Source of the DNA: Lachnospiraceae bacterium
GTDB taxonomy: Bacteria > Bacillota > Clostridia > Lachnospirales > Lachnospiraceae
Assembly: GCA_024680815.1 (NCBI GenBank)
Contig: JAILBQ010000063.1
Location: 1 to 53,975 of the forward strand
Direction: 5' to 3'
DNA: 53,975 bases
Shown: piece by piece, positions 28,988-33,142 of the stretch
How the letters are laid out: each line of letters begins with the position of its first letter
How positions within the stretch are numbered: the first letter of the stretch is position 1
Made by a program: the position numbers and the translations under genes
The notes under the pieces: generated by a model
Seen by the model: the letters and a program-made list of their open reading frames with translations, nothing else
Databases searched by the model: none
What the model was told of the DNA's origin: nothing

Positions 28988-30361
28988 ATGGTTTTCAGTT
29001 CTCTCAATTTTATTTTCCGGTTTATGCCGGTGTTTTTCCTGCTTTACTTCATCGTTCCCTTTCGGGCAAAGAACTGTGTGCTGTTCTTAGGGAGCATAGT
29101 ATTTTATGCCTTCGGGGAGCCGAAGTATGTGCTGCTGGTTTTGTTTTCCATAGTGGTAAATTATTTTATGGCTCTGCTTATGGACCGCCTCGCTCCACGG
29201 AGTCCGGGGAGGCGGTTTGTGCTTTTTCTTGCCTGCCTCTATGATGTCGGGGTGCTGGTTCTGTTTAAGTATACGGGCTTTATAATGGAAAACGTCAATG
29301 CTGTGGCGGGAACGGATTTTCCTGTGCCGCATATTGCCCTTCCGCTGGGCATAAGCTTTTATACCTTCCAGATTATGTCCTACGTGATCGATGTCTACAG
29401 GCGGACCTGCCCTCCGGAGAGGAATATTCTGGATCTGGGAACCTATCTTGTGATGTTTCCGCAGCTTATCGCCGGACCGATTGTGGTCTATACCGATGTT
29501 GCCGAACGTCTTAAGGAGCGTCATATAAATCTTTCTTCGGTTGAGAACGGGCTTAAGCTTTTTACCATCGGGCTCGGGGAAAAGGTGATTTTCGCCAATA
29601 CGCTGGGAAATATATGGAGCGCCTGCAAGGAAGCGGGTTATGAATCCCTTTCCACTCCTTTTGCCTGGCTGGGTATACTGGCTTATTCACTTCAGCTGTA
29701 TTACGATTTCGGCGGTTATTCGCTCATGGCTATAGGTCTGGGGCAGATGCTGGGGTTTTCGTTTCCGCAGAATTTCCGATATCCGTATTCGGCGTATTCC
29801 GTCACGGATTTCTGGCATCGCTGGCATATTTCACTGACTTCCTGGTTCAGGGAATATGTCTATATTCCATTGGGCGGAAACCGGAGAGGAGTTTTCAGAA
29901 CATATATTAATATGCTTATTGTATGGCTTATTACCGGTTTCTGGCATGGCGCGGCCTGGAATTTTGTGGCCTGGGGGCTTTACTATTTTGTTCTGCTTTC
30001 CCTCGAGAGGGCGTTTCTCCACAGATTTTTCTCGAAACACAGGATTGTGGGAAGATTCTGCACACTTATAGCCGTAATGTGCGGCTGGGTGCTTTTCGAT
30101 GCCGGATCACTGAGTGATGCCATGGTCTATCTTTCCAGAATGTTTACGATTCACGGCGGAACGGATTTTCTTCCCAGCCTGCAAACCTACTGGATTTTTC
30201 TTGTGCCCGCCTGTATACTGTCGTTTCCGGTGGCGGAAGGCTTTTACAGAAAATTCAAAAAGAGCCCGGTATGCCTTGTCCTGCTTTTTGCGATTTTCTG
30301 GCTGAGTGTTGTACTTTTGGTTGATGCGGTTTATAATCCGTTCTTATATTTCAGATTCTGA
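28988..30361 (+). CDS. MBOAT-family membrane O-acyltransferase (AlgI/DltB/PatA-like)
   Basis: A 457-residue polytopic protein. It has the MBOAT hallmarks: LVMFPQLIAGPIVVYTDV, YYDFGGYSLMAIGLGQMLGFSFPQNFRYPYSAYSVTDFWHRWHISLTSWFREYVYIPLGGNR, and the catalytic histidine in ITGFWHGAAWNFVAWG (His320). Such proteins pass acyl groups from a cytoplasmic donor across the membrane to extracellular polysaccharide or teichoic acid. The next gene encodes an SGNH hydrolase-like protein, the usual partner that finishes the transfer outside. No dltA or dltC is present here, so polysaccharide O-acetylation is more likely than D-alanylation. The gap after the permease is nine bases, so it may share the ABC operon. 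Confidence 0.93.
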   Translation: MVFSSLNFIFRFMPVFFLLYFIVPFRAKNCVLFLGSIVFYAFGEPKYVLLVLFSIVVNYFMALLMDRLAPRSPGRRFVLFLACLYDVGVLVLFKYTGFIMENVNAVAGTDFPVPHIALPLGISFYTFQIMSYVIDVYRRTCPPERNILDLGTYLVMFPQLIAGPIVVYTDVAERLKERHINLSSVENGLKLFTIGLGEKVIFANTLGNIWSACKEAGYESLSTPFAWLGILAYSLQLYYDFGGYSLMAIGLGQMLGFSFPQNFRYPYSAYSVTDFWHRWHISLTSWFREYVYIPLGGNRRGVFRTYINMLIVWLITGFWHGAAWNFVAWGLYYFVLLSLERAFLHRFFSKHRIVGRFCTLIAVMCGWVLFDAGSLSDAMVYLSRMFTIHGGTDFLPSLQTYWIFLVPACILSFPVAEGFYRKFKKSPVCLVLLFAIFWLSVVLLVDAVYNPFLYFRF

Positions 30362-30373
30362 TTTGGAGGGTAG

Positions 30374-31636
30374 ATGAAAAAGCTGTTCAGAAAATGTCCC
30401 TATACCGTGGCGGTGATAGTTACGGGACTCATCCTTGCGGTATACGGGCTGCTCCTGAATTTTCATATTGTGCCGCCTCTCAGCCAGGGGATTGAACCGG
30501 AGGAGGCGGGCACGGTTGCCGTTGCCAGTGCAATTCATGAGCTTAAAGCGTTTTTTTCGCCTAAGCCGGAAATTACGGTGGCGGATCACTTTGTGCCCCC
30601 GGAGGGAGAAATTCCATCTTCGATAACGGTTTCCGGCGGGACATCTTCCGGACCGCAAAGCGGCAGCGTTTCTTCCGGGAAAGCTTCGAAAGAAGGCGAT
30701 GATTCCGGAAAGTCTTTGACGGAGAAGGAGGACGGGGACGAAGAGACCGGTGAGGAAGAGGGAGAAGAGAATACCGGGGAAGAGAATGAGAAGACTGAGG
30801 AGAATACAAACGAACCGGTGTCGACGGAGGACGGTTCTTACAGCGGTTATGGCCCGTTTACGGAAGTGGATGACAGTTATTTCGGGCCGGATGCCCTTTT
30901 TATCGGAGATTCCAGGGTTGTGGGCTTTGGGATGTATTCCGGCTTTCCGGTAACCACTTACGCCAAAACAGGGTACGCAATACACAGTGTTTTCGACAAA
31001 CCGGTTTTGAAAACCCCGCTGGGTTCCTTCACCCTTCCGGAGCTTATGGCCGCTGAGCCCGGAAAATATAAAAAGATATATATCAAGTTTGGTCTGAATG
31101 AGATGGGCTGGGGGAACGGAGGACTCTTTGAACAGGCATATTATAACGTTATTGATATGCTGAAGTATTACCAGCAGGATGCGGTAATCTATGTTATGAG
31201 CATACTTCCGGTTACTGCGAAGAAGGACGCGGATTCTTCGGTTTTCAGCAACGCCAATATAAACGCCCGCAATGAGGTTATACGTACGGTCGCGGAAAAC
31301 GAGCACGTATGTTATCTGAATATTAACGGGGTTTATACCGACGAAGAGGGTAATATGCCATCGGATTTTGCCTCTGACGGAATCCACCTCAAAGCGGCTG
31401 CAATGGAGCCGTGGAAAGATTATTTAAGGACTCATGCCATTATGACTGAGGCTATTAAGGCGGCGCAGGAAGAAGCGGAAAGGGCGGAGGAGACTGAGGA
31501 AAATCCGGAGGTTACTGAGGCGCCGGCGGAGTCAGCTGAAGAAATTCCGGAAGGTGCGGAAGTGCCGGCTGAAAACGGAGAGCCTCCGGCGGAGGAAAAT
31601 ACCGGAATGACCGAAGAGGTACAGGAACAGAACTGA
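30374..31636 (+). CDS. Membrane-anchored SGNH/GDSL-type acyltransferase or esterase
   Basis: A 420-residue protein with an N-terminal membrane anchor (YTVAVIVTGLILAVYGLLL) and an acidic, low-complexity linker (about 85-160). Its extracellular SGNH domain has block I FIGDSRVVGFG with the nucleophile Ser180, a GLNEMGW block with Asn242, and block V SDGIHLKAAAM with Asp335 and His338. The catalytic triad is therefore complete. A second Glu/Pro/Ala-rich tail closes the protein. Together with the preceding MBOAT protein it makes the standard two-part machine that O-acetylates exported glycans. The acidic tails may act as spacers through the cell wall. It ends 14 bases before the convergent degV stop, and I see no terminator between them. 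Confidence 0.88.
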   Translation: MKKLFRKCPYTVAVIVTGLILAVYGLLLNFHIVPPLSQGIEPEEAGTVAVASAIHELKAFFSPKPEITVADHFVPPEGEIPSSITVSGGTSSGPQSGSVSSGKASKEGDDSGKSLTEKEDGDEETGEEEGEENTGEENEKTEENTNEPVSTEDGSYSGYGPFTEVDDSYFGPDALFIGDSRVVGFGMYSGFPVTTYAKTGYAIHSVFDKPVLKTPLGSFTLPELMAAEPGKYKKIYIKFGLNEMGWGNGGLFEQAYYNVIDMLKYYQQDAVIYVMSILPVTAKKDADSSVFSNANINARNEVIRTVAENEHVCYLNINGVYTDEEGNMPSDFASDGIHLKAAAMEPWKDYLRTHAIMTEAIKAAQEEAERAEETEENPEVTEAPAESAEEIPEGAEVPAENGEPPAEENTGMTEEVQEQN

Positions 31637-32599: not shown

Positions 32600-32720
32600 A
32601 ACTCTGTGACGAAAGGGAAAAAAACCGGTTTGTATTGTGGAAAATGATGTCGGAAAATTGCGACAATATATATTACCAAAATATAAATTTAAAAAATTTA
32701 AAATATTTTTGAAAAAAGTG

Positions 32721-32749
32721 TTGACAATTTAAAACCTGTCGCTTATAAT
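32721..32749 (+). promoter_or_regulatory. Perfect-consensus sigma-A promoter with AT-rich upstream element
   Basis: TTGACA (32721-32726), exactly 17 bp, then TATAAT (32744-32749). The 40 bases before it are almost pure A/T (runs of AAATTTAAA), like an UP element. It is the strongest promoter I see in the window, and no protein gene follows for about 440 bases. Bases 32600-32720 hold nothing else I can name. Confidence 0.88.
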
Positions 32750-32756
32750 ACAGACA

Positions 32757-33140
32757 TAGCAGACGAGGAAAGAAAATAAAGCAAGGTGGAAGAACTTAAG
32801 AAGAAGTTCTGAAAAGGTTCCGAACGAAATTTCGCAGAAAGTGAGGTACAAGCCACCGGACAGTTTATTTTAATTCCTTTTTCCCAATCTCCGGCGGTGC
32901 CGGGATTGTTCGAACTAAATGCTATCAGACAACTTCAGATCCTGCACAAATGACATCACAGATGATACCGGGGCACGATTGGAGAATCAGATCCCTCTCG
33001 AAGAAGGGATGAAGGCCCGACAGGAAAGCGGTCATGGATGGTGTCGATAAGGAGGGACGGTCCAATGGGAACTGTAATTGCTTCAGAGGACTGACAAGGG
33101 CATTGACGGAGGTTTATCGTCGATGCCCTTGTTCTGTTCT
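32757..33140 (+). ncRNA. Unidentified structured non-coding RNA, about 384 nt
   Basis: The stretch runs from the predicted start of a perfect promoter to a strong hairpin terminator and has no long reading frame. Internal pairing is extensive. A closing helix GGTGG (32785-32789)/CCACC (32853-32857) encloses a 7-bp hairpin (32791-32797/32804-32810) and CGAAATTTCG (32825-32834). A GC-rich hairpin lies at 32885-32908. Helix ATTGGA (32978-32983)/TCCAAT (33061-33066) encloses ATCCCT/AGGGAT (32991-32996/33005-33010) and CGACA/TGTCG (33018-33022/33042-33046). It lacks the RNase P GAGGAAAGTCC core, the tmRNA ends, the T-box GGTGG-ACCGCG element and the SRP apical motif. An AAGGAGGG (33049-33056) stands eight bases before an ATG with a nine-codon frame. 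The class and role are unknown; raiA RNA and other clostridial large RNAs should be compared. Confidence 0.7.
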
Positions 33141-33142
33141 AT
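33094..33142 (+). terminator. Intrinsic terminator of the non-coding RNA
   Basis: The 15-bp stem runs from ACAAGGGCAT (33094-33103) plus TGACG to CGTCG plus ATGCCCTTGT (33123-33132), with one T-G wobble and a nine-base loop. It is followed by the T-rich TCTGTTCTAT. The T tract is interrupted, so some read-through into the SPFH operon is possible. Confidence 0.75.

What the first reader, a model, noticed from the sequence alone, without database searches (positions are those of the whole stretch)
32721..33142. Strong, isolated gene for an unidentified structured RNA of about 384 nt
A perfect TTGACA-17-TATAAT promoter with an AT-rich upstream element drives a stretch with no long reading frame, ending in a 15-bp terminator. 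At least five local helices and one long-range pairing (ATTGGA/TCCAAT) are visible. I could not match it to RNase P, tmRNA, SRP, 6S or T-box landmarks. A promoter this strong suggests an abundant RNA. It may be a known clostridial large RNA that I cannot recall, or a new class.
Basis: partly seen in the sequence, partly recalled or inferred. Interest (0 to 1): 0.8.

Follow-up and report, generated by a model that had tools for sequence, protein, structure and literature searches.

The report
Clostridial RNA with ribosome-docking repeats
This is a stand-alone RNA gene with a very strong promoter, one member of a large and apparently undescribed family in gut and rumen Clostridia, built around copies of an unusually strong ribosome-binding-like sequence and ending in a tiny open reading frame that runs into the terminator; what it does is not yet shown.

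Summary
Window 32721-33133 has a perfect sigma-70-type promoter, no long ORF and a strong terminator; nothing in Rfam 15 matches. Relatives show a broad RNA family: its 44-nt unit is found in 184 of 299 genomes of the taxonomic family at E<=0.05, 145 at E<=1e-3, and in other clostridial families. The window has two copies (32841-32862, divergent, without start codon; 33049-33070 with AUG); relatives have up to six detected copies spaced about 56 nt. The unit is predicted to pair strongly with the 16S rRNA 3' end. The last copy opens a 9-codon ORF (33065-33094) whose stop overlaps the terminator stem, as in most relatives tested. One domain (32969-33019) has strong covariation. Neighbour orientation is near random, so it is not a leader. 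Best guess: a trans-acting RNA that docks 30S subunits. Rivals: protein sponge, micropeptide mRNA. A CsrA sponge is disfavoured. No expression data were available.

The parts
32684..32720 (+). A/T-rich stretch just upstream of the promoter (possible UP element)
   Evidence: sequence
32721..32749 (+). promoter TTGACA-17-TATAAT
   Evidence: 12 of 12 matches; a TTGACA promoter lies upstream of the motif in 19 of 29 genus loci scanned
32756..33140 (+). presumed transcript, about 385 nt
   Evidence: inferred from promoter and terminator; start and end not mapped
32841..32862 (+). motif copy 1, without start codon (divergent: GAGGUACAAGCCACC)
   Evidence: genus alignment; listed as first copy of L052
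32969..33019 (+). structured domain: outer helix around a hairpin (32991-33010) with a single purine bulge
   Evidence: pair counts on 17 selected sequences; architecture scan
33049..33070 (+). motif copy 2, AUG type (AAGGAGGGACGGUCCAAUGGGA)
   Evidence: model R1 hit at 33046-33080, E 9.1e-6
33065..33094 (+). micro-ORF, MGTVIASED, stop
   Evidence: stop position relative to the terminator stem
33093..33133 (+). intrinsic terminator stem-loop

Best explanation
A stand-alone, trans-acting RNA whose working parts are one to several docking sites for the 30S ribosomal subunit. Each site is an extended Shine-Dalgarno (GAGGU and, in AUG-type copies, also GUCCA) complementary to the 3' end of 16S rRNA. 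Some copies carry a start codon and a very short ORF, others none. Shown here: the gene family, the repeats and their spacing, the predicted complementarity, the ORF/terminator overlap and the structured domain. Inferred: that 30S subunits bind, that the RNA is abundant, and that it thereby sequesters or senses free 30S subunits, as 6S RNA does for RNA polymerase. The last micro-ORF would bring a ribosome onto the terminator stem and may act on the RNA's 3' end.
For: Predicted duplex with a clostridial 16S 3' tail: mean -18.2 kcal/mol over 106 units, -19.5 and -18.9 for the two window copies, against -5.2 to -12.3 for six gene starts of the window. In W=U copies the part beyond GAGGU pairs better than shuffled (60 better, 13 worse, of 82). 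Copy spacing: median 56 nt, 41 of 53 within 50-60, close to the roughly 54 nt of mRNA covered by a 30S subunit (recalled, Huttenhofer and Noller 1994; only its reference entry seen). A start codon follows in 63 of 106 units (the searches were seeded with this type). The ORF stop ends 0-9 nt into the terminator stem in 37 of 46 segments, against 2 and 1 in the other frames. The array of L124 is predicted no more structured than shuffles. Neighbour orientation is near random, so the RNA acts in trans. The motif is hardly found outside the RNA locus in the genus.
Against: No expression, binding or phenotype data. The A-Y between the two pairing blocks is conserved although unpaired, which a plain Shine-Dalgarno would not need. 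In W=A copies the part beyond GAGGU does not improve pairing (8 better, 11 worse, of 24). 43 of 106 units lack ATG. The footprint length is recalled.
Confidence: 0.42

Rival explanations
1. A sponge for an RNA-binding protein, CsrB-like in logic: the repeats titrate a protein that recognises GAGGUAYRGWCC. The protein is probably not CsrA.
For: A short, almost invariant linear motif repeated in one RNA at regular spacing, with weak predicted structure in the one array folded (L124), is what a protein sponge looks like. It would explain the conserved A-Y and the start-less copies.
Against: RNA and CsrA do not co-occur: 68 both, 77 RNA only, 85 CsrA only, 69 neither, of 299, Fisher p 0.17 (RNA at E<=1e-3). 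The own assembly has no CsrA hit, though it is 92.9% complete and the same-genus genome G079 has one. Many core motifs (AAGAGGUA) lack the GGA of CsrA sites. Few motif matches outside the RNA locus, so no obvious mRNA regulon. It leaves the start codon and the stop/terminator overlap unexplained.
Confidence: 0.27
2. A dual-function or messenger RNA for a micropeptide: the final 5-11-codon ORF makes a functional peptide and the rest is its 5' region.
For: The ORF sits at the same place before the terminator in most members. In five other clostridial families 11 of 12 loci read have a MLDIKSEQK-like ORF with ATG or GTG start, three different stop codons and in-frame insertions at its N-terminus.
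Against: In the window's genus there is no sign of purifying selection on the peptide: 60 pairs, differences by codon position 78, 113, 92; 29 synonymous and 180 non-synonymous codon differences. The peptides differ between clades, and many motif copies have no ORF.
Confidence: 0.17
3. A base-pairing small RNA that uses the G-rich motif to pair with C-rich targets (another RNA or mRNA).
For: Linear conserved motif in a stand-alone RNA gene.
Against: The best complement known to me is 16S rRNA itself. No target search was made.
Confidence: 0.1
4. A cis-acting leader or attenuator in which translation of the micro-ORF controls read-through into the next gene.
For: The stop codon overlaps the terminator stem, as in translation-controlled attenuators.
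Against: Of 94 loci examined, 86 had a downstream ORF called: 48 on the same strand, 38 on the opposite strand.
Confidence: 0.03

Closest known systems
CsrB/RsmZ-type sponge RNAs
   Same: Stand-alone RNA with repeated short motifs that look like ribosome-binding sites (recalled)
   Different: The motif is longer and often lacks GGA; no co-occurrence with CsrA; a micro-ORF ends in the terminator
6S RNA (RF00013)
   Same: In logic only: a stand-alone RNA thought to mimic the substrate of a central machine (here the ribosome)
   Different: No RF00013 match at the locus; the assembly has its own 6S-like match elsewhere, G000:C117:13178-13387, 41.8 bits against a gathering score of 46.4
Dual-function RNAs such as RNAIII or SR1 (recalled)
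   Same: Regulatory RNA that also holds a small ORF
   Different: ORF of 5-11 codons, peptide not conserved within the genus, ORF ends in the terminator
Large clostridial RNAs of Rfam (raiA/ModT, ROOL, OLE, GOLLD)
   Same: Intergenic RNA genes of hundreds of nt, found in Clostridia (recalled; search listing)
   Different: No Rfam match at gathering score in the window and only chance-level matches in permissive mode at the locus; little overall fold conservation
Tandem mini-ORF or minigene RNAs (recalled)
   Same: Very short ORFs behind strong Shine-Dalgarno sequences
   Different: A UAA at the same place also follows start-less copies, so the mini-ORFs of arrays are not proven

Membership tests
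Any Rfam 15 family | covariance-model match at gathering score over the RNA | tested here: not met
   0 matches in the window; best permissive match at the locus E 0.29, far below its gathering score; none over the RNA in 15 relatives' loci at gathering score; in 20 further loci in permissive mode, 9 matches, only a tRNA above its gathering score
tmRNA | tRNA-like domain and tag ORF; RF00023 or ARAGORN match | tested here: not met
   ARAGORN finds none in the window; no Rfam match at the locus. The assembly as a whole has no RF00023 match over cut-off (best 21.1 against 47 bits), so a tmRNA elsewhere was not located
6S RNA | RF00013 match | tested here: not met
   none at the locus; a sub-threshold 6S-like match elsewhere
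RNase P RNA, SRP RNA | Rfam match at the locus | tested here: not met
   I did not look for these genes elsewhere in the assembly
CsrA sponge RNA | co-occurrence with CsrA | tested here: not met
   68 both, 77 RNA only, 85 CsrA only, 69 neither; no CsrA hit in the own assembly
CsrA sponge RNA | binding by CsrA | not testable with these tools
   needs biochemistry
Leader or attenuator | conserved co-directional downstream gene | tested here: not met
   48 same strand, 38 opposite, 8 not called, of 94
Ribosome-docking RNA (proposed) | complementarity to the 16S rRNA 3' end well beyond ordinary gene starts | tested here: inconclusive
   strong predicted pairing, but a recalled 16S tail, six gene starts and a crude shuffle
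Ribosome-docking RNA (proposed) | 30S binding in vitro or in vivo | not testable with these tools
   needs toeprint or ribosome profiling
Micropeptide gene | purifying selection on the peptide | tested here: inconclusive
   absent in the genus, suggestive in other families

The most novel reading that the evidence does not exclude
Clostridia make a dedicated RNA that holds one or several 30S subunits on decoy start sites, spaced in arrays at about one subunit footprint, with minimal ORFs and a final ORF that lets ribosome traffic act on the terminator: a translational counterpart of 6S RNA and a new class of ribosome-regulating RNA.
Probability: 0.35. Interest if true: 0.92.

Novelty: categorically new. 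Interest (0 to 1): 0.75.

Why it matters
The RNA's unit is found in 183 of 298 sampled genera of one bacterial family at E<=0.05 and no Rfam model matches it, so it would be a widespread undescribed RNA family of common gut and rumen bacteria. If the repeats bind 30S subunits, bacteria would be shown to control ribosome availability with an RNA decoy, and the motif gives an immediate handle for testing that (mutate GAGGU, vary copy number). If it is instead a protein sponge, it points to an unknown RNA-binding regulator.

Tried and rejected
Rfam at gathering and permissive thresholds gave nothing convincing at the RNA. BLAST of the RNA against the phage and plasmid collections found nothing; one exact-motif scan of viral contigs found nothing. 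Two weak BLAST matches in the family (L004, L005) and L010 and L012 looked like chance matches in genes by eye. I dropped nine loci from the later counts: L070, L094, L105 and L116 (other phyla), and L110, L142, L053, L136 and L140 (no sign of the RNA gene by eye); the lists are in the scripts (one search dropped six of them). I first read 'AUG GGA NNN stop' as proof of mini-ORFs and then dropped it: start-less copies also have an in-frame stop within three codons in 20 of 29 cases, AUG copies in 54 of 119. A CsrA sponge was tested and not supported. The ATTGGA/TCCAAT pair is not conserved. RNAalifold on the 15-sequence MAFFT alignment found almost nothing but the terminator; the domain 32969-33019 appeared only after inspecting its variable stem, and by energy alone it is not exceptional in the window (z -0.64, 47 of 200 shuffles as good). 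A search for that architecture gave a hit in 21 of 26 loci (a few in another register) and none in 5; the 17 rows of A3 were chosen because they show the domain. Peptide conservation in the genus was tested and not found. Ten literature searches ran. None listed a description of this RNA, but only open-access papers are held and supplements could not be opened.

Full report
CHECK. The region is as described. The promoter TTGACA-17-TATAAT at 32721-32749 matches 12 of 12. No ORF of 60 codons or more lies on the + strand inside the transcript. The terminator at 33093-33133 folds far better than shuffles (z -7.1); the whole transcript has z -3.55. In its assembly the RNA has no other match than itself and a 22-nt stretch. 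The divergent upstream gene is a DegV gene (PF02645), the downstream gene an SPFH/Band 7 gene (PF01145). Rfam 15 gives nothing at gathering score in the window, and in permissive mode only chance-level matches at the locus.

RELATIVES. BLAST alone finds almost nothing: 3 of 299 family genomes, one being the own genome and two chance matches. A genus search gave weak matches; reading them showed shared blocks around GAGGTACRG in L006, L007, L008, L009, L011 and L014. The pattern GAGGKACRGTCCRATGGGA is in 40 of 48 genus genomes at up to 2 mismatches, with some doubtful 2-mismatch hits. It occurs exactly in 55 stretches of the genome collection, most titled Lachnospiraceae or genera of that family; four are in plainly unrelated organisms. 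A sequence-only model of the 44-nt unit, from 106 units, hits 184 of 299 family genomes at E<=0.05, 145 of them at E<=1e-3. In a class-wide sample it hits 24 of 291 at E<=0.01, 18 of them outside the family; about 3 chance hits are expected. Of seven such loci outside the family that I read, six (L181-L184, L186, L189) are clearly the same kind of gene and one (L187) is unclear.

ANATOMY. (1) Promoter: TTGACA with a -10 hexamer upstream of the motif in 19 of 29 genus loci; some of the other loci are cut by contig ends. (2) The motif GAGGUAYRGWCCA in a start type (mostly W=U, then AUG) and a start-less type (often W=A with CCR or CCA): of 106 units 63 have ATG, 59 of these with W=T. The searches were seeded with the start type. 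(3) Arrays: 22 loci hold chains of two to six detected copies; 53 spacings, median 56, IQR 53-57, 41 within 50-60, with single outliers near twice 56. In one search no locus had strong hits on both strands. (4) A last short ORF before the terminator. In 46 distinct segments starting at a start-type motif, the frame-0 stop ends 0-9 nt into the detected terminator stem in 37, against 2 and 1 for the other frames; the sequences are related, so these are not independent, and a few segments are not final copies. In other clostridial families 11 of 12 loci read have a MLDIKSEQK-like ORF whose stop (9 TGA, 1 TAA, 1 TAG) lies in the terminator stem, the other arm changing with it. These loci were gathered by that ORF or by R1; 10 of the 11 genomes are R1 hits, and one (G493) is not. 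(5) In the window's genus, a domain of an outer helix around a hairpin with a single 3' purine bulge: on 17 selected sequences 89.7% of cells pair (38-57% in slid controls), 8 of 13 pairs have double changes, and the covariation score is 0.337 against 0.037-0.117 slid and 0 of 500 shuffles. The rows were chosen because they show the domain, but MAFFT, not the structure, aligned them.

WHAT IT IS NOT. Not a leader: of 94 loci the downstream ORF is co-directional in 48, opposite in 38 and not called in 8. Not 6S: the locus has no match, and a 6S-like match lies elsewhere. Nothing marks it as tmRNA, though the assembly shows no tmRNA over cut-off at all. Not a CsrA sponge by co-occurrence: 68 both, 77 RNA only, 85 CsrA only, 69 neither, Fisher p 0.17. 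The own assembly has no CsrA hit, the same-genus genome G079 has one. The motif is not a general mRNA operator: GGAGGTAYRGWCCR has 46 exact matches in 48 genus genomes against 12 for the reversed control. Six matches away from the RNA locus were read: by eye five lie in coding-looking sequence and one (L225) at the start of a gene, which is what the control rate allows.

MECHANISM. Each copy can pair with the 16S 3' end: mean -18.2 kcal/mol over 106 units, -19.5 and -18.9 for the window's two copies, against -5.2 to -12.3 for six gene starts of the window. In W=U copies the part beyond GAGGU adds to pairing (60 better, 13 worse than shuffled, of 82); in W=A copies it does not (8 better, 11 worse, of 24). 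The L124 array is predicted no more structured than shuffles (z -0.36). The spacing is close to the mRNA length a 30S subunit covers (about 54 nt, recalled from Huttenhofer and Noller 1994; only its reference entry was seen). I therefore commit to 30S docking as the likeliest working part (0.42), with sequestration or sensing of free 30S subunits as the inferred purpose. A protein sponge (0.27) would explain the whole motif as well. A micropeptide (0.17) is not supported in this genus but is suggestive elsewhere.

NOVELTY. No Rfam family matches, and ten literature searches listed no description. Only open-access text was searchable and supplements could not be opened, so parts of the family may sit unnamed in published candidate lists such as the 3161 intergenic candidates of Fremin and Bhatt 2021 (PMC8040213, passages only). 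Papers seen as passages: PMC5171806, PMC8040213, PMC3650055, PMC8443254; all others as search listings only.

Noticed in passing
G000:C117:13178-13387 (L200): A 6S-like RNA match (RF00013, 41.8 bits, gathering 46.4), probably this genome's 6S RNA.
   Followed up: no
G000 whole assembly: No tmRNA match over cut-off (best 21.1 of 47 bits); the assembly is 92.9% complete, so this may be a gap.
   Followed up: no
L065, L081, L101, L106, L128, L130, L135: A sub-type by eye: motif near the 5' end, then in several an ORF with ...QYE.G.A, CAAUAUGAGAGUGGUA-like sequence and a later CACUCAUAUUGAA-like sequence that could pair with it.
   Followed up: no
L078, L097, L147, L123 and L068, L104, L119: The final ORF reads MKLLEIH, VKLLEIHW or VRLKEIH just before the terminator, another clade-specific micro-peptide.
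   Followed up: partly
L008, L014, L069, L078, L097, L123 and others: A second recurring linear element, about UUUAYAUAGAUGA, between the motif copies and the last ORF; seen by eye only.
   Followed up: no
window 28988-31636: MBOAT acyltransferase gene followed by a GDSL-lipase-domain gene, an arrangement known from polysaccharide O-acetylation (recalled).
   Followed up: no
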